A DNA stretch of 64,000 bases from assembly GCA_032622095.1 (NCBI GenBank), contig CP136064.1, positions 181,508,011-181,572,010 on the forward strand, given 5' to 3'. Under the pieces are notes generated by a model. The model ran no database searches, was not told the DNA's origin, and saw nothing but the letters and a program-made list of their open reading frames with translations. Shown here in pieces: positions 8,791 through 33,773 of this stretch; within the stretch, counting starts at the first letter, position 1, and every line of letters begins with the position of its first letter. Origin of the DNA: Siphonodentalium dalli. Its lineage: Eukaryota > Mollusca > Scaphopoda > Gadilida > Siphonodentaliidae. A program made the position numbers and the translations under genes.

Positions 8791-9756
8791 CATGATTATA
8801 TCATTTCACTTAAATATAATAACAAATTTAGCTAATTTACAAAAAAAAGTTGCACATAGTTAAGCAACCCAGATAGAAAACATATCTGATATTCAAAATT
8901 TGTCTCATTTTGTTGGTTTTCCTGATTATACTGAAATTTGCAGGTCAAAAACACTAAAAATGTCCACAAAAAAATATATATTTTCCACCTGCTCCGCCAT
9001 GGATACCTCAGTGTTTTGGAACCACCATGGGGCAAGGATAATTGGAGATAGCTTCAAAATGTTTACAATTTCGTATGACACAACACTCATCTGGGTGCCG
9101 GTCTAATAGAGATTACAATACAACACACGTGTAATAATATGTGTATGTATTGTATGGTGTATACATATATATATACACGTTTACAATTCAAGTTGCTCAA
9201 CTTATTCAGCTTCGGTTGTACACCCAACAGTGACGAGAGTAACTGTTGCTGTACCAGAACCCGACTCAATGCATATGCAGGTGTATAGGTTATAATACAC
9301 CAAATACAAATTAGTATCTAGAGTGATTTCCCCTGGGACTGTTAATAATTTAAGGCAGGGGTTCAGGGTTGGTGATTTTTTCGATGCCATTTTTTCTCCA
9401 TTTTAAGGGTAATGTGACGTTTGTCAAACTGCAGCGTTATGCAATACGTTGACAAGTACTTTTGGGCACATGTTCCTGTGTCTAAAAGGGCGTTCTTCAA
9501 TTTTTGATACTCGTGTAGGGTCAAATAACCTATATTTTGTGCAAAAATATCCATCTCGCAGAGGAGTAGATTTTTACAAAGTGTAATAAGTAACTGCCTA
9601 GAAGCACGTGTAACCGGCAATAAGGAGAATCCCGTACAGAAAAGTTATCCCATTTTCAGGTTAGGTAACTCCAATAAAAGAAATAATCATTACCGCATGT
9701 AGCGCTATTTCCCCCCCCGCAGGCAATTTATTGTGTTATTTGATATTAATTTTTTT
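8791..9756. other. No gene recognised
   Basis: AT-rich DNA with a small TATA-rich patch at about 9160-9180. The several 60-85 residue frames on both strands have no recognisable domain. Confidence 0.4.
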
Positions 9757-10905
9757 TTGGCAATATATAACTGGTGCTGCTCTGGTACGAACTGATGCGA
9801 CACTGATTGAAGTTACAGGGACCTTATTTGGCAATATCAAACTGGTGCTGCTCTGGTATAAACTGATGCGACACTGTTTGAAGTTACAGGGACCTTATTT
9901 GGCAATATAAAACTGGTGCTGCTCTGGTATAAACTGAGGCGACACTGATTGGAGTTCCATGGACCTTATTTGGCAATATATAACTGGTGCTGCTCTGGTA
10001 TGAACTGATGCGACACTGATTGGAGTTACATGGACCTTATTCGGTAATATATAACTGGTGCTGCTCTGGTATGAACTGATGCGACACCGATTGGAGTTAC
10101 ATGGACATTATTTGGCAATATATAACTGGTGCTGCTCTGGTGTGAACTGATGCGACACCGATTGATATTACATGGACCTTATTCGGTGATATATAACTGA
10201 TGCTGCTCTGGTAAGAACTGATGCGACACCGATTGATATTACAGGGACCTTATTCGGCGATATATAACGGGTGCTGCTCAGGTAAGAACTGATGCGACAC
10301 CTATTGATATTACAGGGACCTTATTCGGTAATATATAACTGGTGCTGCTCTGGTATGAACTGATGCGACACCGATTGAAGTTACATGGACATTATTTGGC
10401 AATATATAACTGGAGCTGCTCTGGTGTGAACTGATGCGATACCGATTGATATTACATGGATCTTATTCGGTGATATATAACTGATGCTGCTCTGGTAAGA
10501 ACTGATGCGACACCGATTGATATTACAGGGACCTTATTCGGCGATATATAACTGGTGCTGCTCAGGTAAGAACTGATGCGACACCTATTGATATTACAGG
10601 GACCTTATTTGGCAATATATAACTGGTGCTGCTCTGTTATGAACTGAGGCGACATTGATTGGAGTTACATGGACCTTATTTGGCAATATATAACTGGTGC
10701 AACTCTGTGATGAACTGACGCGACACCTATTGATATTACAGGGACCTTATTTCTGCGATATATAATTGGTGCTGCTCTGGTATGAACTGATGCGACACGG
10801 ATTTGAGTTACAGGAACTTATTTCGCAACATATAATTGGTGCTGGTCTGGTATGAACTGATGCGACACTGATTAGAGTTACATGGACCTTATTTGGCAAT
10901 ATAAT
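9757..10905 (+). repeat. ~71-bp satellite array, forward half
   Basis: About 16 head-to-tail units of roughly 71 bases. The core reads AACTGGTGCTGCTCTGGTAT, then GAACTGATGCGACACCGATT, a short variable segment, and GGACCTTATTTGGCAATATA. Units differ at a few positions (GATATTACAGGG versus GGAGTTACATGG). Some blocks of three to four units look duplicated as higher-order repeats, for example around 10120-10320 and 10390-10600. Confidence 0.9.
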
Positions 10906-10954
10906 ATGATCATACGCAAGCGTAATTAACGAACCAAAGCTAAAACAATCACAT

Positions 10955-11590
10955 AGGCCGGTGTCGCATCAGTTCATACCAGTGCAGTACCAGTTATGTC
11001 GGCGAATAAGGTCCCTGTAATACGAATCGGAGTCGCATCATGTCATACCTGAGCAGCAGCAGTTATATATTGCCAAATAAGGTTCCTATAACCCCAATCA
11101 GTGTCGCATCAGTGGGTACCAGTGCAGCACCAGTTATATATTGCCAAATAAGGTCCATGGAACTCCAATCGGTGTCGCCTCAGTTTATACCAGAGCAGCA
11201 CCAGTTATATATTGCCAAATAAAGTCCCTGTAACTCCAAACAGTGTCGCATCAGTTCATACCAGAGCAGCACCAGTTATAGATTGCCAAATATGGTCCAT
11301 GTATTTCAAATCAGTATCGTATCAGTTCATACCAGAGCAGCGCCAGTTATATATTGCCAAATAAGGTCCCTATAATTCCAATCAGTATCGCATTTGTTCA
11401 TAACATAGCAGCACCAAATATATATTGTCAAATAAGGTCCCTGTATTTCCAATCAGTATCGCATCAGTTAATAGCAGAGCACCACCAGTGATATATTGCC
11501 AAATAAGGTCCATGTAACTCCAATCAGTGTCGCATCAGTTCTTACCAGAGATGCACCAGTTATATATTGCCAAATAAGGTCCATGTAGCT
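10955..11590 (-). repeat. ~71-bp satellite array, inverted half
   Basis: About nine units of the same satellite in reverse complement (ACCAGTTATATATTGCCAAA, TAAGGTCC, GTGTCGCATCAGTTCATACC). They are separated from the forward half by only about 50 bases of unrelated sequence (10906-10955). Together the halves form a very large inverted repeat. Confidence 0.9.
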
Positions 11591-11624
11591 CAAATTACTA
11601 TAGCTAGTTATGGTATAGTGTGGT

Positions 11625-17250: not shown

Positions 17251-17740
17251 TGTCCAACGTATAGACTATCAACAATAGCTTTATATCAATAAATATGACT
17301 GCACATATACACTGAATAACCACCATGACTGGCTATAGTGACTAATGTAGCTGTATATAGACTTAACCGCCTTGTTAGGTATAGTGACCATTCTTGCTTG
17401 CTGACTAGAGCGATAGGCCACTAAAGTTTTGACTACCTGATCAGAATCGAACTTGTTATGTGTGTTCTGGGACTAATATAACACATATATATTAGTCCCA
17501 TGTATGTTTTACAGTTGAAATACATGTCTATTGTGGTGGTGCAATTGGAAATGGCTAGCAAGCATGTTGTGTCACGCCCCACCGATCGATGCGTATGTCC
17601 CATAAGATAAGAAGTTTACACGCTTTATTGATAATTCATTTTATCCCTTAAAGTAGCTTGAGGTCAACGACATCTATTTTGTAGATATGGCAAGAAACGT
17701 GAGCAAAAAGTTAAGGGGGTATGTTTTTGTCCCATGTAGA
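17251..17740. other. No gene recognised between satellite arrays
   Basis: AT-rich spacer between the ~162-bp and ~82-bp arrays. It contains a short inverted repeat around 17471-17501 (GGGACTAATATA / TATATTAGTCCC). Confidence 0.5.
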
Positions 17741-19430
17741 AAGCCTTGATACAGAGCGGGACAAGCGTTACAGAAGCTGCCAAAATATGTTTTTATTTCT
17801 CATCGTTATCTGCGTCTCAGTAGTAACCCTTGATACAGAGCGATACAAGCGTTACAGCAGTTAAAAAATCGTTTTTATTTCTCATCGTTATTTGCGTCCC
17901 AGTAGTAACCCTTGATACAGAGCGATACAAGCGTTACAGCAGTTAAAAAATCGTTTTTATTTCTCATCGTTATCTGCGTCCCAGTAGTAACCCTTGATAC
18001 AGAGCGATACAAGCGTTACAGCAGTTAAAAACTCGTTTTTATTTCTAGTGATTATCTGCGTCCCAGTAGTAACCATTGATACAGAGCGATACAAGCGTTA
18101 CAGCAGTTAAAAATCGTTTTTATTTCTCGTCGTTATCTGCGTCCCAGTAGTAACCCTTGATACAGAGCGATACAAGCGTTACAGCAGTTAAAAAATCGTT
18201 TTTATTTCTCATCGTTATCTGCGTCCCAGTAGTAACCCTTGATACAGAGCGATACAAGCGTTACAGCAGTTAAAAATTCGCTTTTATTTCTCATCGTTAT
18301 CTGCGTCCCAGTAGTAACCCTTGATACAGAGCGATACAAGCGTTACAGCAGTTGAAAATCGTTTTTATTTCTAGTGATTATCTGCGTCCCAGTAGTAACC
18401 CTTGATACAGAGCGATACAAGCGTTACAGCAGTTAAAAAATCGTTTTTATTTCTCGTCGTTATCTGCGTCCCAGTAGTAACCCTTGATACAGAGCGATAT
18501 AAGCGTTACAGCAGTTAAAAATCGTTTTTATTTCTAGTGATTATCTGCGTCCCAGTAGTAACCCTTGATACAGAGCGATATGTACAAGCGTTACAGCAGT
18601 TAAAAAATCGTTTTTATTTCTCATCGTTATCTGCGTCCCAGTAGTAACCCTTGATACAGAGCGATACAAGCGTTACAGCAGTTAAAAAATCGTTTTTATT
18701 TCTCATCGTTATCTGCGTCCCAGTAGTAACCCTTGATACAGAGCGATACAAGCGTTACAGCAGTTAAAAATCGTTTTTATTTCTCGTCGTTATCTGCGTC
18801 CCAGTAGTAACCCTTGATACAGAGCGATACAAGCGTTACAGCAGTTAAAAAATCGTTTTTATTTCTCATCGATATCTGCGTCCCAGTAGTAACCCTTGAT
18901 ACAGAGCGATACAAGCGTTACAGCAGTTAAAAAATCGTTTTTATTTCTAGTGATTATCTGCGTCCCAGTAGTAACCCTTGATACAGAGCGATACAAGCGT
19001 TACAGAATCTTACAGAGTTGATTTTATTTCTCATCGTTATCTGCGTCCCAGTAGTAACCCTTGATACAGAGCGATACAAGCGTTACAGAAGTTTAAGGAA
19101 TCGTTTTTATTTCTAGTGATTATCTGCGTCCCAGTAGTAACCCTTGATACAGAGCGATACAAGCGTTACAGAATCTTACAGAGTTGAGTTAATTTCTAGT
19201 GATTATCTGCGTCCCCGTAGTAACCATTGATACAAAGTGATACACGCGTCACAGCAGTTAAAAATCGTTTTTATTTCTAGTGATTATCTGCGTCTTAGTA
19301 GTAACCCTTGATACATAGCGATACAACCGTTACAGAATCTTACAGAGTTGATTTTATTTCTCATCGTTATCTGCGTCCCAGTAGTAACCCTTGATACAGA
19401 GCGATACAAGCGTTACAGAAGTTTAAGGAG
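17741..19430. repeat. ~82-bp satellite array, about 20 units
   Basis: Head-to-tail units: CCTTGATACAGAGCGATACA, AGCGTTACAGCAGTTAAAAA, TCGTTTTTATTTCTCATCGT, then TATCTGCGTCCCAGTAGTAA. Two variants alternate, TTTCTCATCGTTATCTG and TTTCTAGTGATTATCTG. Units toward the right end carry an alternative CAGAATCTTACAGAGTTGA segment. High unit identity in the middle and divergence at the edges is usual for arrays homogenised by unequal exchange. Confidence 0.93.
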
Positions 19431-21601: not shown

Positions 21602-21829
21602 AATAAATTTTACGATGGAAAAGATTTTTATAGACGGTCGACCTTAATATTGTATCGACCTGCGACCGGGGTCAGCGGTTTAGAAATTTCGAGGTCAAGT
21701 GAACATCTGAGCGCCAACCACGAGAAAGTCGGGTACCTTAATTGATTGATTGTCTTCGTGGTGACGTTGTCGATATCCGACTGCCCATTCAAACGAATTT
21801 CGCACAGACCACAAGGTCAATAATTTCTA
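21602..21829 (+). repeat. Terminal repeat A1
   Basis: 228 bases beginning AATAAATTTTACGATGG and ending CAAGGTCAATAATTTCTA. It is identical to 33242-33469 except one base (GATGG versus GAAGG), at a constant offset of 11,640. The left flank is (TA)n. Confidence 0.95.
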
Positions 21830-24800
21830 GCTCCTGTTTCGAGATACCTTTGGGTCTACTGTTGTATCATCACCATCTATGTGTTTGCTATGTGTGCAGT
21901 CTATTCCAGTCTGGGGATGCTGTCTTGAAATGATTGTCTGTGTTCATGTGAGATGCGTGGTTAACCAGAGCGGTGTTAGGCTTATGCATGACGTTTGCAA
22001 AATGCTATGAGGTCTTATACAGGTAATATGAACTTTCCATTGACCCTGCCCACCAGGAATGAGAATTCATTGACTGCCAAAGCTGACTCAATCGATTTAA
22101 TGTCAAAGGCTCGAGGACAGTTATCTTGAATGGACCACTATACCCCTTTGACTAGTTTCTAGGGCTATGTTTGAAGATTAAGGTTTTCGTCATTCCATTC
22201 TTATTTTTCACAGGTATATTTGGATTGAGACATTTGACTTGGCATTCAGCTAGGTTTCCCGGAGGCGGGAGCCCACCTTGTTAGGAGCTCCATCACTGTT
22301 TTAGCTCCAATTCATCGGGGCAGCCACCCTTTATCCGTTGCACGCGAATATGTGGCGATTTGCTTTTTATGACTACTTTGTGGTGGATTGCCAGGTGCGC
22401 AATGCAGTGGGCTGGCTCTTCAGCGGATGGCAAGTTTGGTCAATGTGGCCACGGCGGATTACACCCTACATCCCGATGATCACTAATTACTCACCGGCCT
22501 AGAATGGATGAACTTAATGTTTTTCACACATAATATTCAATAATCAACATAGTTCTCGTCAGTATAAGCTCTGTTTGTGTCTGATAACCGACAATTTCTC
22601 GATTACTTTATATTTCCATTTTATAAACCGTACTTTTCTTCGCGATTGTTTTCTTCCAGTGCACCAAACTAGCATTGACCGGAAGCGAACCCCCACCGTG
22701 AGTCCGTCGTGAAATATGACATATTTCGTCGGAATACGGTACTTTCCCATTTATAAATTTGTTTTTTAATATATAAAACATGTAAGTTTTCTAGTTATGT
22801 ACTTTGGGTCATAATACGACATCTTGTAATCTCGCTTTCGACTGGAGTAGTAATTCTAATCTTTTAGAGTATCAACATTTTCATCTGTAAACGGTACAAA
22901 ACTTATCTAAATCGTGGATAATCAGGCGATGAAATTAATTCCAACGACTTGAACAAACGGTCAGCATCTATTTCACATCTTACATTTGCCCGATAGACGG
23001 ATCGATTTGCTTTCGTGGCAGAATTTCATGTACCTGCCACGAATTCATAAATGACAACATCAGGAACATGTGTCTACAATAGTAATATGGCGACTAGCTC
23101 CCCAAGAAAAACTGACTGACAGGTTTTAGCGGACGTTTTTCACACGTTACCGTAAACACTAATCAAAAGAATTGTTCCATGGCTCTTCATTGTATGTCAC
23201 TTTTCATAATGGGCTGCCTAATGTTACTGTTGAGATATAGTTTTTTTTTTACATTTGACTGCCCAAACATTGTCATAATAGTGCAGATATCTTCTGTTTC
23301 CAAGTCACTTTTCTGGTACATAAAGCTTTTTAGTTCACATCTATTAGTGCCCCCCCCCCCTTTACCACGATGTATGCTCTAATTTTTCTCATGTTGTTAT
23401 GTCTATTTATGTCTGATTTTAGGTGGACAGGGGCATTTTTGTCAGCCCGTTTGTTCGACATTTTTCGTGAAACGGACTTTTCCATCCCCTTAATTCAATT
23501 CCGTTGGGTTATTCTGGTCATCATATAGGATATTCGCGTTGTTCCTATTACAAAATCTGTGACATAATAGTTATGTATGCGGGCACATAGGTTATCATGT
23601 AGATTGAGCGGATTTCTACGACACTATGGTCATGTTCAAAATAATTATTATTTTAGATTTGATCATTGTGGTCCAGCGAGCGGGGTTTTGTGCTATGAGG
23701 GCTAATTAGCCTCACGAGGACTGAACTCGTTTGGGTCGTGATTCTTTCGCGTTAACTTTACTCAGACGAGATTGGTTGCATACATGCTTACTTATCAATG
23801 AATTTATAGTAACTTATGCCTTCCTTCAAGGTTGGGGCAGACCATTTGCCATGGCAGGATTCTCATCGTGACAATTCATACTATATGGGTATCACCCGCA
23901 GTCTATCAATATCCTAGGAATTTTGGGTAGATCCCACCACATTGCGACCGGTTGCCATAGCACCTTCTTTGCGGAAATTTATGAGGTTGGGGGCTGTAAT
24001 TTCGCTATATGCTGTTATGTTTGAATATAATATAAATGGTTTTTCTAAAGCTAAATGATCCAGGGCTATTTTCCAACATCTGAAACTAACCTTGCTCTCA
24101 AATCTTCCTTCAGCCTGTGGGCGCCATTCAAAATGGCCACCGAACCACCCTTTCTAATGTTACAATGCTTACTTTTCTATAACTTTATAGCCATGTACGC
24201 GTTAATTTCATGCTGTGTCCGACTATTTGGCATGACGGAATTATCCAGGGACAACTCATGTTATACGGGTCATCAGTCGTGGTCTATACATCCTCCAAAA
24301 TAATTTGGTCACTGCCCCCAATTTGCGTCCGGGTGACGGGGCAACCCATTTTCGGAAAGTTATGCGTTTGGGGGCTGTATTTGCGCTTTCCGAGATGTCG
24401 ACATGCGACATTTTGAAACAAAAGCAATTAATTGCCACAAACTAGGGTCCAGGAATATATTTAAAATACTCGCGTTTCTTGTCTTTCCGCGGAAGTGGTA
24501 AAGATTCGCCTGCCATGGAGATTTCCAACCGAAGTCTTGTCTGCGCGTCTATGACTTCGGCTTCTCGGCGCCAACATTTTGGAACAATGACGTCACGGAG
24601 TCACGCGACCCCCGCGTGCCGCCAAAGATAGGTTACATCTTCCTGGACCCCTCGCTGCGTGATCGGCCTATCGACCGAATACCTGATACTAGGCGCAAAC
24701 ATTTAATTATAACCGATTCATTCGCTTCTTTCAAGTGCATGGATGGGGAAACCAACAACAAGTCTCAGCCTTTTCCGACGACATTCGGCAAGTTCCTTGT

Positions 24801-26081
24801 TCCGTGCGCTCGCGCAACAGTATGGCGATCAGACGGATTCGAACCTTGGTGTCGCTCTACTCCGTTTCACTCCATGACGTCACCATAAAACGACGTAAAA
24901 CCTCGTGGCGTTCTGACAATTTTACTGTGCCGCGTTTTTGCTATGTTTATTTTATGTGTTTTCGATTATTTGTTTGTCGCCGATTTCGCCATTTGTCGGG
25001 ATTCCCTGTTTCTATATTTAAAACTGGCATGCTCGTAGTGAGCCTCGGTTTCGATTTTTTCTCCCAGGTCAAAATTCGTCCGAGTTATGACAATAATAGA
25101 TCGACCTACATTTTCTCCATCAGAACTCTACATCAAAGAGTCTATGGACTCCTTCGGGACCTACCTAGACTTCATTTGGGTATTTTTACTTATATTTGGG
25201 AAGTTTGATCGTTTTTGGTTCGTGCGAAGACCTCTTTTTATCATGCGGGAAAAGACATTCAAAACGCGATTTCGTAATTCGACGCAATTGGCTGCATAGC
25301 CTAACCGTCAACCGAGTTCCGGGTCACATACGACGAATGACGTAACGCAAAACTATACGCATTGGTTGACATCGTTTGAAGAGTTTATTGTTACATAAAA
25401 TGATCGTTATTGATTAATTATTGATTAATTCTTGATATTTATTGTTGCATATTGGCTGTTATCAATATTTACATCAATGGTTTTAATTATTTCTTATAAT
25501 TGCTCCTTCGGTCGACTTTGACTATCGGAAAATGAAAATGAAAATATGCCGCTGTAAATACAAATGTAATCGATATTAAAGTCTCATCCTTTCGGCAACA
25601 TGGAATTGGTTTTAATTAAATGATTAATATTGTAATTTGCCTTTTATCGGTGATGAAATGCGATATGGTAATTGTCTTGTTTTGCTAACATTAAATTAAA
25701 TTACATAAATTAAGTAATATACAGTGAAATTATTTTTTAATTATTACCTTGTTGCGCACGTTGGCATCTCTCTGAGTGCATTTTAGTTTCTTTTTGGTTT
25801 CGTGAGTTACGTAATTGCAGTAGGGTCCTCAAGCTAATCGGCCGTAGCTCTTTACATAAATCATCACCAGCAATACGCTCAATTGTAGATATTTACTTCT
25901 CGATTCGGGACGCAGATTTCGGCGACTATACAACAAACCCATTTGTCATGGAGGGCCGCTGGATTTAATTAATCTATCATAATGACAGTGTCTTCTATCA
26001 GTTTGGATTTAAATAAAACACAAACGTAACAATACAAAACAAAACACAAGATGTCAGCATAACTCACTTTCTAACAATCGT
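21830..26081. other. Interior of the recombinase element; no gene recognised
   Basis: No ORF here has a recognisable domain. Two diverged direct repeats are visible at about 23826-24010 and 24190-24400; both contain a GxGGTTGGGGGCTGTA-like or GTTTGGGGGCTGTA phrase and a CATGGCAGGATT / CATGACGGAATT phrase. The frames at 24616-24888 and 24735-25208 overlap each other and match nothing I know. A C homopolymer occurs at 23350-23359. Confidence 0.45.
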
Positions 26082-26960
26082 GTGAGGAGGTACTCACAAG
26101 TGAGTCAGCACTTCTCCTTCTTCCCCCGGGCGGACAGCTCGGGTGACCCGTACACTCGTATGGTTACAGGTTGTACAAAATCGGTCCCCCATGATAGGTT
26201 GCTCTTTGAACTCGAATGGGAGAAGCTGGACAGTAGGCGGTATGTTAAACGAATGAGTATATTTTACGATATTGCAAACAGCAAAGCCCCCGCCTACTTA
26301 ACTCGGCTTCTTCCGTCAAAGGTTACGGATAACTGATTACGAACTGAGAAATACATCAAATTTATATCGTCCCATTTCAAATAGCAAATGAACAGATAAC
26401 ACTTTCTTCCCCATATGCGTTATGGATTGGAACAAATTGGCGGACAAAATAAATAACACAAAAAAAACATACAAACAAACAATCACAGGATGAACCATTC
26501 CACTCGATAGGTTCAAGAAAGCACTAGTAACTAAGCCATTCCAACTACCAACATGTTTTTCATATGGTAAACGGCTATTAAACATCCTTCATTGTAAACA
26601 GTGGTGTGAATGTGTTAATCTCCAAGCTGATAAACTTAAAAATTATATAGCAATTTCTGCTACAGGTAGGTGGGGACATGCTGTAGCGAATGCTTTCCAC
26701 TAATGTTTTGTATGCCAACCACACTTTGAAGAAAGAATTACACGCCGTAATAATCTTCTGCGCTTTCATATACAGTCAGTTATGGCACTTATATTTGGGG
26801 ACCCGAACTTCGAACAATTATAAACTGAACATATATCTTTCAAGCTGTGCAAAATTACTTCCGAGATACAACTTAAGAGGAAAATCCGACAAAGTTCTGT
26901 TAAGGCGCTCGAATCTTTTGAATGCAAATTGTACAAATGTTAACAATGCACCATGAGGTA
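26082..26960 (+). pseudogene. Decayed CR1/jockey-like LINE RT C-terminus inside the element
   Basis: The opening frame contains a basic run and then PHDRLLFELEWEKLDSRRY, KRMSIFYDIANSKAPAYL and TRLLPSKV, the C-terminal region of non-LTR RT proteins. Past the stop at 26334, other frames continue the same protein: FSYGKRLLNILHCKQWCECVN (about 26550-26615) resembles the conserved FGKRxxNILHxRLR block that precedes the terminal zinc knuckle. Several stops and frame changes make this an old fossil. Its decay contrasts with the near-identical ends of the surrounding element. Confidence 0.65.
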
Positions 26961-29559
26961 CATGTATCACATTTAAAACAGCTACTTGCAATCATTAATG
27001 AAATTATTTAGAATTGGTGGGGTGCTGAGACTATACACTATACTTCAAATAATATACAATGATCCACTGTCTGTATACACTTGTACATTATGTTATACCT
27101 ATCACGACAACCCACATTCTTATGTATCGGTGTTAAAACGGAAATTGGGAGAGGGGGTTATGTATAAGTGGATCGCACTTGTCCTCCAATCCCAATATGT
27201 ATTGTTATATACTTATTGGTAATAAATATGTTTACAGGAATACGGTCCTGAAAAAACAACAATAATATTTTCTTTCAATATACCGATAATATATATATAA
27301 AATGTCCATTGGGCGCATATAATCTAATATTCGGCCGCCAATCGTTCTTTTTATAACGACTAAATAAAAAATTCCGAAGTTAGCCGAAGATTTTGTTGTA
27401 GACGTAGTCACGTGATCGGCCCGATCACGTGATTGTCACATGTACACAGAAGCATAGCACGTGTTCGATCACGTGATAACTCATTGACAACGCATAGATC
27501 CGCATCGGCGGTGTTTTAAGTTTGCATGTAGTCGATCGCGGCCTTTGAAGATTGTCGTGTTATCACACTGCGAATGCAAAACTTCGCCGAAAACATCGCC
27601 GTTCTCGTAATTAACTGTCTTTATCGTGTTATTATTTTTATATGCATCGCGATGTGCTGTTACTATAAAGCCATGCCTGTATATTATTCAGTTTGGCGCG
27701 CATTTATCTATATAAACACGTGATGCATTTATATATTTTTTTTCGTTACCGGAATAGTCCAAGTTATATTATATATTCATATAAAGATTGCATATATATG
27801 CGAAGACTTGCACAGTTATTAGGCAATTATCATCTCGTAAACATTCCAATTTCCAGATGCCCTTAGTCGTGTGTGAATAAAGAGCGGTTCGTTTTAATTT
27901 GTTGTAACGCGGTAGAAAGAAAAAAAAAAAAAAATTCGGTTTATTGCTGTCGGATTTAATCAATTATAATCAATTCATTCATTACCAATATGATATGATA
28001 AATTCATTTTTTCTTGGTTATGAATCGTGTATATATTTGGGCAATATGGTGTTTATATATATTTCGGAATATTGCTTCCCACACCCCAACAATCTTGCCG
28101 ACTGTCACTGATGGAAATTCACTGCGTCTATGCATGGTTATTGGCCTATATAATTAGCACTCTAGCGATGCGGTCTATTGAATATCCAGGTCATAACTCG
28201 ACCTATGTGTCAATTACGCATAACAATAGGATTATAAAATATATAAACGTTCGCCGTGGTTCGTTTAAACACCCAGTCATATATAACACTTTTTGAAGAA
28301 GGGATAATAATCCAGTTTAATATGTAATCACATATACAAGCACTCTTTATTCGAAATATATCGTACTAGTGAACGCTCTTTATTGCGTCAAGGTAAAGAG
28401 ACTCGACTTAGAACAATTGTCATCGTGATTGTTTATTGATTACACAAATACAGGTCAATACAATCATGTACACGTATTTCCTATATGCATGCTTTATATA
28501 TCCTTCCAAGTCATAGCAATTCCCGCTTTATTAAACTCTTTTTATTCGTACCATATTAGGAAACCTATTAACATGGAACGCTCTTTATTGAGCCATGGTG
28601 AAGGAAATGGGGACTCGACTTAGTACAGTTGTCATCGTGAATTATTCATCAACATACTCCCCACTTTAACTGCAACTGTATGTATTAGTAACCATGACTG
28701 ACTCGTCAAATTAAACGCTCTTTATTTGGTGTATGTAATCGGTTTCTGATTTTGCGCAACGGGTTTCCCACAGGAATCCCGCCAAATGTCACGTAAACGA
28801 TCATCGTTTGGAAATGAATACAGCATTATACCTAACCGAGAGTCACTAGACCGGCCACAGCCGAAAACGCTGCATTTATATGGCATTGTCACGAATGAAT
28901 GATTGTAAATACGGGAATCTGGATTGCTTTATTCTTTGATCCAATTAAATAACATGAATAGATATTGAGAAAACGATTTTATATACATAAGATGGACAGA
29001 ATTACGAAAAGTATTTATATACAATATATACAGTGTGACAGATATACAACATCGCGAACACGCACCCGAATAATGTTCACTTGCCGGCTCGTGTTTTCAT
29101 AAGCTTTATTTTTGACACGAAAGTGTTATCTACCCCGCTCAATCGGCCTTCTATAGTTTTTGTCAAAACATTACCTTTCCAAACAGCACTTAAGATAAAT
29201 CACATGTGAAGATAACTCACCGTGCGATGACAATTCACCATGTGTACACAATGCTATTGATATGCCCCGCAGTAATTACATTACACTATCGCGCTGATAA
29301 TTAACTCCGACTCCGATTCCCTGTTTTTATATTAGTTTACCTCGCTTGACGTCATGCGAGGTTTTGCGACGGAGATAGCCGACAACCGATGGTGGTATTA
29401 TTTATTTATTTCTCGGCTTATTTATTACGCGATTTTTATGGGACTTGGATCATTGTGATCACAATAGGGGTGGCTTTCCGATGGAGTTTTTGTTGTTTCA
29501 TGAGGATAGTAATCCTTTAAACCAAACTCGGTTAGGCAATATTCCTCATGGGGAGTGGT
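26961..29559. other. Interior of the recombinase element; palindromes and motif repeats, no gene
   Basis: AT-rich. Noteworthy pieces: CACGTG palindromes at 27408-27472, an A homopolymer at 27918-27932, and a cluster of AACGCTCTTTATT motifs at about 28371, 28575 and 28713. The ORFs present are short and unrecognised. Confidence 0.45.
27408..27432. repeat. 25-bp perfect palindrome with CACGTG cores
   Basis: TCACGTGATCGG, one central C, then CCGATCACGTGA. Further CACGTG sites lie near 27459, 27468 and 27718. It could be a protein-binding cluster (E-box type) or a recombination-related structure; function unknown. Confidence 0.7.
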
Positions 29560-29890
29560 GTCGCGGTGATCGCATGGTATCCATAGGGTCGTGGTCCGGT
29601 TTTACCACTTGTTTGTCCGTCTGTCCGTCCGTCCGTCTGTCTGTAGACACTTTACGCATGGTGCTATAACTGACATCTTTTCACGCTGATCGGTGCCAAA
29701 TGTTGTGTATGCATTTCTCCGCACTAAATACAGATCGAAATCCGATATATTTTAAAGGATTATGGCCCATTGCCATTGCAATCATGCATGCTTCGACAAT
29801 TCACCCATTTTTCAGCTGTTAGGTTCCATATACTTGGTCTGAGTTCTCAACGCACGACTATAGATCGAGTTCGATTTTGGTTTGCTCCGA
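29560..29890 (+). repeat. GTCT-bearing dispersed repeat (copy inside element)
   Basis: A GGTCGTGGTCCGGTTTTACC segment, a TCTGTCCGTCCGTCCGTCTG run at 29615-29645, then TAGACACTTTACGCATGGTG and CTATAGATCGAGTTCGATTT. The same layout is seen at 47818-48290 and 51330-52060. Confidence 0.65.
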
Positions 29891-30344
29891 TATTCTTCAT
29901 GCCGTTCTGCCCCTTTGATTATTTTCTTCCTGTCTAACCATATATCTTAGTTGCATAGTATGCACTGTCCCGGTAGTCTGTTATAAAACCGGTTTACAAT
30001 GCCATGCAGTTTTTCCCCACATGTGTGTTGGCCATCATATGCGATATCATTGAGGGGAAGGTTTCTGCTATCATTTTTATACCCATGGTTAATTCCATTG
30101 CAGCTTAGAGGCCTAACCTGGTTTTACTGTTTAGTAGCATTACTGTGGGTGGTTAATGCAGTGATTGTGTTAAGTAGATGGTTGGTTGCTTCGGCTACCC
30201 TAGTTGGTGTGGGCGCTCGCCATGATGTACCGGTGGGTTTTGGTGCATCATACGGTGGTCTCCGGGCTATAACGGTCGTCATCCGGTACGGCGTGCTGGC
30301 CGGGGCGTCGGTTACGCCTCTTTTTATGACCTTAGTACTTGTTT

Positions 30345-30360
30345 TCTCCTTTTTTTTCAG
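30345..30360 (+). promoter_or_regulatory. Candidate splice acceptor before recombinase ORF
   Basis: CTCCTTTTTTTTCAG immediately precedes an ATG at 30361. The long pyrimidine tract plus CAG fits an animal 3' splice site, so the recombinase transcript may carry an upstream intron. No donor was identified. Confidence 0.4.
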
Positions 30361-31877
30361 ATGCCAAAAGCGACAGCAATGACCAGACACCGATTAGTAC
30401 CCGACGTCCCGGTGGAAGTGGTTGGGCCATCGCGGGGGACCATGCATGCATTACCAGCCGGCGTCCCTGCCCGTTCGAAGGGGATGCCCGCCAGGAGTGG
30501 TACATATTCTACGGCCGCGCCTTCAATTGTTCGTCCCGTACGGCCGCGGGTCACGCGTGTGCCTGGCAGTGTGCGTCATAGGTCGGTGCGGTCGACTCCA
30601 GCGTCATCGGTTGGTGCGCGATCGTCGTGTGGTCGGGTGCGTGCTGTGGTCATGTCCGAAGAGGTTGCAGCGGTCGCTGCTTCGGCCGATATTCGCGGGG
30701 AAGACGAGCAGTGTGTTTTCCGGGTCAGTATAGCGGGCCTCTCCTCTCAATCCCGTTAGTGCTTTCTGCAGAGGACAAGGCGCGTCTGGCTCCAAAGTTG
30801 CAGGACGCATGGCTGGGACTTGGTGGCATCGTCTCCCGTTCAGGGTGCCGCGGTCCCTCGTCGGCATTAGGACAGCCACAGACTTACGCTACTGTGGCTT
30901 CTGATCTCGATTTTCCACCGGCTGGCCCCATGGGCCGACCCGGAACAGACTCCGTTGCCTGCGTCGCTGACCATCGACACCTTGTGGGAACTATGACTCG
31001 GTTACTCGATGCTGCCCTTACTTGTTCATCTCGGCAGTATACGCCCGAAAGGGTTTTTTTTGTTCAGTTTGCTTCCCGCTTTAACGTCCGTCCATATCCG
31101 CCCGTTCACGTGAGCACGCTGGGGCTCTTTCTCGCACATCTTTTCCAGATCGGGTATAGCACCGCCACGGTGCGTAGTGTTTTGTCGGTCATCGCATATC
31201 AGCACAATATTCAGGGCTTAGCGACTCCCACTACACATTTCCGGATTCACAAAATGCTCGCGGGCTTTCAACGCTTGCGCCCGAGCGGCGACCCGCGCCG
31301 ACCAATTACTGTTCCCATGTTACACTCTATGATCGCTGTATTGCCCTGTTGCGTGGCATCACACACGGAATTGTCCTTTTACGCGCACTATTCGTATTCG
31401 CGTTCTACGCGCTGGCCCGTATTGGCGAAATGTGCACTTCACTCTCTGCCCCTCATCTAACTGTCCTGCTCGTTTCCGATGTCACGGTCACGCCCGCCTC
31501 CATCGACATCTGCTTCCGGCATGTCAAGCACGGAGTTAATAGATTGCCCCAAGTGGTCGCTATTGGCAAGTTAGAGGATCCCACCTTTTGTCCGCATTCC
31601 CATTTCCGTCTTCACTAAACATCGCGTTTCGACGGCGGGCCCCTTCTTCTGCTCACCGGACGGTCGGGGCATAACACGGGCGCATTTCAATGCCGTTCTC
31701 CGGAGAGTGTTGTCAATTCTGCGATTGGATGACCGGGATTTCAAGTCTCACTCCTTTCGGATAGGCGGGGCATGCTTGGCAGCATCGCGGGGTTACTCCG
31801 ATGAACAAATCCGGATGCTCGGGCGCTGGACATCCGATGCGTTTCGCAAGTACATCCGTCCTCCGCCGTTGTCATAA
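30361..31877 (+). pseudogene. Tyrosine recombinase (frame-disrupted)
   Basis: Encodes a tyrosine-type site-specific recombinase, which would cut and rejoin DNA through a 3'-phosphotyrosine. The start is taken as the ATG at 30361 after a splice-acceptor-like tract. The N-terminal ~130 residues are Arg/Pro/Ser-rich. The SAM-like core-binding domain (about 31035-31285) includes FVQFASRFNV, LGLFLAHLF and STATVRSVLSVI. The catalytic domain has ALARIGEM (first Arg codon at 31418), HSFRIGGA (His 31749, Arg 31758), LGRWTSDAF (Trp 31827) and KYIRP (Tyr 31851), with stop at 31875. The frame changes near 30720-30760, near 31335 and back near 31590; the last two cancel. All key residues survive, so sequencing error or recent decay are both possible. 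The gene is GC-rich, unlike its AT-rich surroundings. It resembles recombinases of DIRS/Ngaro and related animal families. Confidence 0.85.
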
Positions 31878-32290
31878 CAAGAGTTCCGCGATTGGCCGTT
31901 TCCGTTCGTGCGTCTTGCCACCCTCGTATATCAGTCACAGCGGCCGAGCGGGCACCCTTCCATCAATGCCGGGCGTCGTTATCTGCAGTTCCGTTTGCCG
32001 ACTCGACGGGCACGCACAGTCAGATTTCCGCGACTGGGAGGGGTTTGGCAGGGTTATCCGGCCTGTAAGTCGTGTCGCAGCACGCGTGGGGGATCTCGCT
32101 GCCCGGTCTCTCCCTGTCCTTTGTTTTCATGTTTTCCGACCCCCCCCCCTAATTTTCTGTTTCAAGCAGGGCCCGAGCGTTGTCCGCGTATGCGCTACCC
32201 AGTTTACATGTACTTCATGGCCCGGTTTCCGTTTCATGTCCGACCGACATCCGCCCCCTGCCTCTGCTGGTGGTGCGCAATGGTTGCACT
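31878..32290 (+). other. GC-rich 3' flank of recombinase gene
   Basis: High-GC continuation with overlapping frames (31801-32376, 31908-32306) that show no domain; I treat these as shadows. A C homopolymer lies at about 32140-32148. Confidence 0.5.
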
Positions 32291-32299
32291 GGTTGCACT

Positions 32300-32930
32300 G
32301 TGCTAGTGATGGTTTTTTGGTTGTTAATTGTAGCGCCGGTTTCACTGTTCCAGTGATGGTTTGTTTTGGTGGTTAATATTTAATTTTTTTAAGCGCTCAT
32401 CAGTCTCTGGTGGCGCCGGTTTCACTGTTCCCCAGTGATGGTTTGTGTTTTCTTTTTCACTGTTACAGTGATAGTTTTTTTTTGGTTATTCTTCACTATT
32501 GGTTTTTTGGTGATTCACTTTTATAGTGATGGTTATTTGGTTGCGCTCACCAGTCTATGGTAGCGCTGGTTTCACTGTTACAGTGATGGTTTTTTGGTGG
32601 TTAATATTTATTTTTTTTCAGCGCTCATCAGTCTCTGGTAGCGCCGGTTTCACTGTTTCAGTGACGGTTTTTTGGTGGTTAATATTTATTTTTTTCAGCG
32701 CTCATCAGTCTCTGGTAGCGCCGGTTTCACTGTTCCAGTGATGGTTTGTGTTTTCTTTTTCGCTGTTACAGTGATAGTTTTTTTTTGGTTATTCTTCACT
32801 ATTGGTTTTTTGGTTATTTTTTTTCCGCGCTCATCAGTCTCTGGTAGCGCCGGTTTCACTTTTATAGTGACTATTTTTGGTGGGTTTTTTTCAGCGCTAA
32901 TCAGTCTCTGTGGTTGCAGTGGGTTTTTCT
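32300..32930 (+). repeat. Tandem hairpin array downstream of recombinase
   Basis: About eight copies of a ~75-base unit: CAGCGCTCATCAGTCTCTGG, TAGCGCCGGTTTCACTGTT(A/C)CAGTGATGG, then a T- and G-rich stretch. In each copy CACTG and CAGTG form a small stem (TCACTGTTACAGTGA). Copies are near 32330, 32410, 32460, 32570, 32650, 32728, 32765 and 32860. The array lies between the recombinase gene and repeat B1. Confidence 0.75.
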
Positions 32931-33060
32931 CATTTCCGTAATTTGCGTAATTTTACACTTTCTTTTTATAGGTGGGTTCTTTTCTCAGTCTTTATACTGG
33001 TTTTTGTATTGGCTTCTGGTGGGTGTATGCCGAGCTCGCGTCCAACACTTCACTCGGCAA

Positions 33061-33242
33061 GTGGCGTGGTACACCCAGGTTGCATATTGTTCAATCGGGG
33101 CCGCGCCACATGCCGATGGTCGTCTTAATTTCGGTAATTCGATTAAAGAATTGCCATTACGCAAATATGTCTTAGTCTTTAATTATTTAGCCCAACAGTG
33201 GTACCCAGGGAATTGTCGTAAAGTAGGGAGATAGGATATAAA
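33061..33242 (+). repeat. Terminal repeat B1
   Basis: 182 bases from GTGGCGTGGTACACCCAGG to AGATAGGATATAAA. It matches 33592-33773 except one base (GGTCGTC versus GGTTGTC). It joins A2 directly, giving GGATATAAAATAAATTTT at the border. Confidence 0.95.
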
Positions 33243-33469
33243 ATAAATTTTACGAAGGAAAAGATTTTTATAGACGGTCGACCTTAATATTGTATCGACC
33301 TGCGACCGGGGTCAGCGGTTTAGAAATTTCGAGGTCAAGTGAACATCTGAGCGCCAACCACGAGAAAGTCGGGTACCTTAATTGATTGATTGTCTTCGTG
33401 GTGACGTTGTCGATATCCGACTGCCCATTCAAACGAATTTCGCACAGACCACAAGGTCAATAATTTCTA
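33242..33469 (+). repeat. Terminal repeat A2
   Basis: 228 bases, one mismatch to A1 at 21602-21829. It follows B1 with no spacer. Confidence 0.95.
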
Positions 33470-33544
33470 CCCGCCATCCCACCCTTTCAGGTGTGGGCTT
33501 CTGCCCCCCCCCCCCCTCTTCCTCCAGTGACTGGTTAGTGCTTA

Positions 33545-33573
33545 GTATGGCACGGCCCGGTGCCGTGCCATAC
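33545..33573. repeat. Perfect 12-bp hairpin between A2 and B2
   Basis: GTATGGCACGGC (33545-33556), loop CCGGT, GCCGTGCCATAC (33562-33573), followed by TTTTTT. The shape, a GC-rich stem then a T run, stands out in this AT-rich DNA. Confidence 0.85.
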
Positions 33574-33591
33574 CTTTTTTGGTTTAGGCGT

Positions 33592-33773
33592 GTGGCGTGG
33601 TACACCCAGGTTGCATATTGTTCAATCGGGGCCGCGCCACATGCCGATGGTTGTCTTAATTTCGGTAATTCGATTAAAGAATTGCCATTACGCAAATATG
33701 TCTTAGTCTTTAATTATTTAGCCCAACAGTGGTACCCAGGGAATTGTCGTAAAGTAGGGAGATAGGATATAAA
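33592..33773 (+). repeat. Terminal repeat B2
   Basis: 182 bases, one mismatch to B1. The right flank begins TACACTTACACATTTG. Confidence 0.95.

What the first reader, a model, noticed from the sequence alone, without database searches (positions are those of the whole stretch)
21602..33773. Large tyrosine-recombinase element with near-identical A/B ends but no reverse transcriptase
Seen: A (228 bp) at 21602 and 33242, B (182 bp) at 33061 and 33592, each pair with one mismatch; a recombinase gene with R, HxxR, W and Y residues inside; no RT, RNase H or gag of the element. Known: Ngaro/PAT retroelements use A1-ORFs-B1A2B2 split repeats and always encode RT in full copies; Crypton DNA elements have a recombinase but lack such ends; fungal Starships are large recombinase-driven cargo elements. 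Inference: this may be an animal DNA element that moves as a circle, formed by joining B to A, and carries about 8 kb of passenger DNA.
Basis: partly seen in the sequence, partly recalled or inferred. Interest (0 to 1): 0.85.

Follow-up and report, generated by a model that had tools for sequence, protein, structure and literature searches.

The report
Large retroelement borrowing its copying enzymes
A 12-thousand-letter jumping element, present in dozens of similar copies in one animal genome, has lost its own copying enzyme and its joining enzyme is broken in the copies examined, yet it has spread recently, apparently using enzymes of related elements, and its copies carry an odd excess of changes at the letter A on one strand.

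Summary
The repeats are real and mark a mobile family. Of eleven other loci fetched, ten hold the same unit A1-interior-B1-A2-B2 (nine of 11.7-12.8 kb, one 5.8-kb deletion form) at different sites; the eleventh is a 529-bp A-spacer-B. The genome has 185 A and 167 B matches. The 8.7-kb "passenger" is a fixed part of the unit. No RT, RNase H or SGNH was detected; a possible gag-start remnant precedes the recombinase, whose frame is broken in 30 of 30 loci compared. Related recombinases (40-51% identical) have an RT hit just upstream in 20 of 39 cases, against 0 of 77 for hits of this type. Variants found twice in A or B always lie in both repeats of one copy: 6 of 6. Private interior changes hit sense-strand A about 2.5 times as often as T, whichever way the copy is inserted. 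Both fit copying through RNA better than a DNA circle. Best reading: a large non-autonomous derivative of Ngaro-like retrotransposons, mobilised in trans. The adenine bias is the least expected part and lacks a control family.

The parts
21602..33773 (+). whole element, A1-interior-B1-A2-B2
   Evidence: collinear in nine other near-full copies plus one deletion form; exact ends at twelve different sites
21602..21829 (+). repeat A1
21830..30354 (+). interior of unrelated DNA ('passenger'), fixed part of the family
   Evidence: present in nine other near-full copies with small indels
28725..28886 (-). THAP-domain exon within the interior; belongs to an abundant separate repeat
   Evidence: Pfam THAP E 0.0014; open in 10 of 10 copies, altered at its end in one; genome hits
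30355..30378 (+). possible remnant of the start of gag
   Evidence: eight identical residues with the gag start of L059 (E 8.5, not significant alone)
30924..31877 (+). tyrosine recombinase, frame broken at two places
   Evidence: tblastn 38.6% over 329 residues, E 2e-64; frames
32266..32901 (+). array of partly alike ~75-bp repeats between recombinase and B1
   Evidence: family D2
33061..33242 (+). repeat B1
33242..33469 (+). repeat A2, directly joined to B1
33470..33591 (+). spacer between A2 and B2
33592..33773 (+). repeat B2

Best explanation
A large non-autonomous derivative of a Ngaro-like tyrosine-recombinase retrotransposon. An ancestor lost RT-RH and most or all of gag ahead of the recombinase and carries about 8.5 kb of other DNA 5' of it; its recombinase frame then broke and drifts near neutrality. 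The A1...B1-A2-B2 ends remain. Inferred cycle: a sense RNA runs from within A1 to within B2; RT-RH (and Gag) of related autonomous elements copy it; the internal B1-A2 junction is the template that rebuilds the outer ends, so A1 equals A2 and B1 equals B2 in each new copy; a recombinase supplied in trans inserts the product at short A/T-rich sites. Shown: multicopy unit, anatomy, no detectable RT, broken recombinase in the loci compared, end homogenisation, strand-asymmetric private changes, RT-bearing relatives in the same genome. Inferred: the RNA intermediate, which elements help, and the circle.
For: Ten other loci with the same arrangement at different sites. No RT/RNase H/SGNH in six frames or by tblastn. 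Recombinase relatives at 40-51% have RT within 4 kb upstream in 20 of 39 hits, against 0 of 77 hits of this type (the RT search scored 67 of 2633 candidates). L059 encodes gag, RT-RH, recombinase and SGNH. First frame break in 30 of 30 loci, second in 22 of 30; replacement:silent alleles 26:18 against about 2.3:1 expected if neutral. Six of six doubleton variants lie in both repeats of one copy; none separates A1 from A2 or B1 from B2 across copies. Changes at sense-strand A 167 of 2647 sites against T 87 of 3470, in copies on either chromosome strand, 7 of 8 copies, 9 of 9 bins. Ends like Ngaro: A 236 and B 152 bp in a Xenopus family (PMC9210276, passage).
Against: No helper sharing the A/B ends was found; L059's own ends were not covered and its sequence near the recombinase does not resemble A or B. 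Gene conversion could also homogenise repeats. One of eight copies (C7_206) does not show the A bias. No control family for the bias. The gag remnant is eight residues, E 8.5. Some recombinase hits lie in longer open frames (293-385 aa), so the family may still have carried a working recombinase. Two or more copies end at B1 and lack A2-B2, which the model needs an extra event to explain.
Confidence: 0.75

Rival explanations
1. One reading: a DNA element that excises and integrates as a circle by its tyrosine recombinase, carrying cargo, with no RNA step.
For: Recombinase without RT in the loci read; B1-A2 is a B-to-A junction; simple A-interior-B copies and short A-spacer-B copies exist, as expected if circles are resolved at such junctions.
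Against: Recombinase frame broken in 30 of 30 loci; copy-by-copy homogenisation of A and B; strand-asymmetric private changes in element orientation; recombinase relatives are RT-bearing.
Confidence: 0.12
2. The same A/B family still has full-length members with their own RT, and this is their deletion derivative, not a family using other elements' RT.
For: Such derivatives are usual in retroelements (general knowledge); recombinase hits at 62-77% identity were not read.
Against: No RT hit within 20 kb of any of 77 recombinase hits at 62% or more, though only 67 of 2633 RT candidates were scored; no RT in 62 held loci.
Confidence: 0.1
3. Segmental duplication or satellite-like spread, not transposition.
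For: Two short A-spacer-B copies share both flanks.
Against: Twelve of twelve copies compared have different flanks and the same exact ends.
Confidence: 0.02

Closest known systems
Ngaro-like retrotransposons (Xenopus DIRS-53_XT, PMC9210276; Cafeteria Ngaro, PMC8547959; passages read)
   Same: A1-ORFs-B1A2B2 split direct repeats of nearly the same size (236 and 152 bp in Xenopus), recombinase gene last before B1, related recombinase of RT-bearing elements in this genome
   Different: No RT-RH, at most the start of gag, broken recombinase, twice the usual ~6 kb length with 8.5 kb of unrelated DNA
SIRE, short derivative of VIPER (PMC6681497, passages read)
   Same: SIRE corresponds to the A2-B2 part of VIPER, like the 529-bp A-spacer-B units here
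   Different: SIRE is about 0.4 kb and from trypanosomes; no 12-kb derivative is described in the passages read
LARD (large retrotransposon derivative; concept recalled, named in PMC8498967)
   Same: long non-autonomous retroelement with a non-coding or foreign interior
   Different: LARDs have LTRs; this has split direct repeats and a recombinase relic
Crypton (PMC3212892, passages read)
   Same: recombinase without RT; non-autonomous derivatives known
   Different: animal Cryptons have no terminal repeats; no DUF3504 match here; recombinase relatives carry RT

Membership tests
Ngaro-like retrotransposon | split direct repeats A1 ... B1-A2-B2 | tested here: met
   window copy and ten of eleven other loci fetched
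Ngaro-like retrotransposon | encodes RT and RNase H | tested here: not met
   six-frame Pfam and tblastn negative
Ngaro-like retrotransposon | encodes gag | tested here: not met
   at most eight residues of a gag start
Ngaro-like retrotransposon | tyrosine recombinase downstream of RT-RH, related to Ngaro recombinases | tested here: inconclusive
   related to recombinases that follow RT in this genome; no reference Ngaro, PAT or DIRS sequence was available for a tree
Ngaro-like retrotransposon | no methyltransferase-like domain (distinguishes from DIRS/PAT) | tested here: inconclusive
   relative L059: Pfam shows RVT_1 and weak RNase H only; the element itself has no RT region to judge
Ngaro-like retrotransposon | A1/A2 and B1/B2 near-identical at insertion | tested here: met
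Crypton | DUF3504-type recombinase, no long terminal repeats, DNA only | tested here: not met
   long A and B repeats; no DUF3504 match at E <= 0.1; that DUF3504 is in this Pfam copy was not checked
Starship (definition recalled) | DUF3435 captain as first gene at the 5' end of a fungal element | tested here: not met
   no such Pfam match; recombinase lies at the 3' end

The most novel reading that the evidence does not exclude
Copying of this animal element is adenine-error-prone: each of eight copies carries 8-31 private changes at sense-strand adenines, to C, T and G alike, spread over the whole unit. This would be an adenine-biased reverse-transcription signature, outwardly like that of bacterial diversity-generating retroelements (recalled), in a eukaryotic tyrosine-recombinase retroelement, and it would let RNA copying be read from genome sequence alone.
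Probability: 0.25. Interest if true: 0.8.

Novelty: new variant of a known kind. Interest (0 to 1): 0.5.

Why it matters
How tyrosine-recombinase retrotransposons replicate rests largely on models. A multicopy family with no detectable RT and a broken recombinase, but with ends that look rebuilt in each copy, suggests that the ends can be reconstituted in trans, and it gives a natural marker: copy-private variants shared by A1/A2 or B1/B2 trace the templating step. The sense-strand adenine bias offers a sequence-only test for an RNA step that can be applied to any such family. It also shows that these elements can fix and spread kilobases of unrelated DNA. In the listings of searches, and in a phrase search for non-autonomous DIRS or Ngaro that found no paper, I saw no report of a large derivative of this kind; the library is open-access only, and repeat databases were not searched.

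Tried and rejected
Splice test: the deletion joints that printed (27.36-27.59 kb in C5_74 and C8_130; 23.73-23.97 kb in C5_74) lie at short direct matches (CGA, TTTG), not GT-AG; three other joints did not print. Structure prediction of the L059 recombinase without an alignment failed (mean pLDDT 38.7), so no fold search was made; no PDB sequence match at E <= 0.1. Rfam at gathering score: none; tRNA genes: none. Cargo as a chosen host gene: rejected for the THAP piece (150 matches scored of 1352 candidates, many outside the family); one such locus did not match the element 0.3-0.7 kb and 1.0-1.4 kb away from the exon. Strong conservation of the ends: they vary less than the interior, but those copies were picked through A matches; in loci picked by recombinase B1 differs from the window at 1-5 sites in 27 of 29 other loci, one was cut short and one has no B1. 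Short A-B units as an independently replicating family: not shown; the two that were read and share a deletion also share flanks, so they are one insertion. Low transition share as evidence of RT: dropped, since tandem repeats in the window and flanks also give ts 3275 to tv 3828 (131 overlapping pairs). The organism could not be named.

Element positions in the full-copy alignment are one base too high; counts are unaffected. L009 is the window locus, so it was counted once with the window (30 loci, 31 rows). In one search the second set (13 loci) shares seven copies with the first; in the third set L027 and L038 were dropped. In one search the 529-bp unit and the three outermost columns were left out.
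Full report
The observation. The window lies in a 2.23-Gb assembly of nine contigs of 190-301 Mb. At up to three mismatches the A pattern occurs 185 times and the B-end pattern 167 times; the reversed controls gave 0.

Family anatomy. I fetched eleven other A-bearing loci, chosen among the best A matches. Ten have A1-interior-B1-A2-B2: nine of 11.7-12.8 kb and one of 5.8 kb with an internal deletion; the eleventh is a 529-bp A-spacer-B unit. Eight copies including the window differ by 0.70-1.08% in nearly star-like fashion; two others differ from these by 2.4-2.7%. In the twelve copies compared the flanks differ and the ends are the same, at A/T-rich sites, with no target duplication beyond an ambiguous one to three A.

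Other forms. A script grouped 113 A, 101 B and 71 recombinase positions (exact-match lists cut at 100 rows, plus additions; gap limit 16 kb), so the classes are lower bounds and some lone A or recombinase entries are effects of the cut: 17 complete chains A-recombinase-B-A-B, 16 A-B pairs, 18 lone A, 16 lone recombinase, 6 lone B, and smaller classes. The 529-bp unit, for instance, counted as a lone A. Two copies have other DNA right after B1 and right before A1. One copy has an extra A-spacer-B at its 3' end. Two of the 16 pairs were read and share both flanks, so they are one insertion copied with its surroundings. These forms fit recombination between repeats as well as resolution of circles at B-A junctions; I cannot tell which.

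Genes. Six-frame Pfam scans at E <= 0.1 found THAP (E 0.0014, minus strand) and Subtilosin_A (E 0.07), nothing else. The recombinase sits in three frames. In 30 loci compared (4 kb round the recombinase) the first break is in all 30 and the second in 22. Over the three pieces, alleles seen in two or more copies are 26 replacement and 18 silent, near the neutral expectation of about 2.3 to 1. Some genome hits lie in longer open frames of 293-385 aa, so less broken copies exist.

Relatives. A protein search (1150 candidates, 150 scored) gave, by locus, 77 hits at 62% or more and 39 at 40-51%. Of the 39, 20 have an RT hit within 4 kb upstream on the same strand; of the 77, none has one within 20 kb. 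The RT search scored 67 of 2633 candidates, so absence is not proved. One relative, L059, has open frames for gag (420 aa), RT-RH (663 aa, RVT_1 E 9e-14), recombinase (338 aa) and, 5' of them, a GDSL/SGNH protein (258 aa, E 3e-7). Its recombinase matches the window element at 38.6% over 329 residues. Its gag begins with eight residues also found at 30355-30378 (E 8.5); otherwise its gag, RT-RH and SGNH have no match at E <= 1e-3 in 62 held loci. L059's ends were not covered; no likeness to A or B was seen.

RNA or DNA. Two tests favour RNA. First, in eleven composite copies A and B hold 14 variants: six occur twice, each time in both repeats of one copy, eight occur once, and none marks A1 against A2 or B1 against B2 across copies. 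[quoted passage not shown] Gene conversion remains possible. Second, among eight copies isolated private interior changes number 338 on 10,690 sites, hitting 5.97% of A, 2.36% of T, 2.24% of G and 2.05% of C sites. Without the isolation filter the counts are A 167 of 2647 and T 87 of 3470 (chi-square p 7e-13 treating sites as independent). A exceeds T in 9 of 9 bins, in copies inserted on either chromosome strand, and in 7 of 8 copies; C7_206 is the exception. A second set of 13 recombinase loci, seven of them the same copies, gave A 8.0% against 3.4-4.1%; a third of 15 older loci plus the window gave A 14.0% against 5.7-6.6%. A process tied to element orientation is needed. Sense strands of this element and of L059 are T-rich (A 0.25, T 0.32-0.33) while the window flanks are even. 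RT error at adenine, base modification of the RNA, or damage to single-stranded DNA could all produce it. No control family could be fetched.

Known relatives. Ngaro-like elements match in ends and order (PMC9210276, PMC8547959, passages); length, missing RT and gag, and broken recombinase differ. Membership as a Ngaro element proper fails on RT and gag; it is filed as a non-autonomous derivative that works like one. SIRE, which corresponds to the A2-B2 part of VIPER (PMC6681497), parallels the short forms. Cryptons and Starships do not fit on repeats or recombinase type.

Judgement. A large, recently active, RT-less derivative in a known class. The adenine-biased, strand-specific pattern is the part most worth following.

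Noticed in passing
window 28725-28886 (minus strand): THAP-domain exon of 54 residues inside the interior; the genome has very many near-identical matches outside this family (150 scored of 1352 candidates, identities 87-100%), so an abundant THAP-bearing repeat exists.
   Followed up: partly
G000 C3:25100872, C6:125545705, C3:57716444; L064, L065: Three related recombinases (49%, each with one TGA) lie 10.6-11.1 kb from short A-spacer-B units in opposite orientation; two of those units were read and share both flanks, so a second large mobile unit may carry the short unit as a passenger. No RT hit near them in the capped list.
   Followed up: partly
window 26013-26336: Open frame whose sequence looks to me like the end of a non-LTR retrotransposon RT, within the interior (resemblance recalled, no call identifies it).
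   Followed up: no
window 9753-11595 and 17729-19423: Tandem arrays with spacings of about 71 and 82 bp, the first with an inverted part.
   Followed up: no
window 30350-30363 and L059 gag start: Pyrimidine run and CAG directly before the ATG at the presumed gag start, like a 3' splice site; seen in the window DNA and hinted at in L059 by the shared residues.
   Followed up: no
G000 C2:156393637: Unusual chain: recombinase-B-A-B followed 445 bp later by a second recombinase and B.
   Followed up: no
G000, RT hits: Many Ngaro-like RT frames without stops (604-664 aa) occur in this genome at 47-50% to L059, several with the same score, suggesting young families.
   Followed up: no
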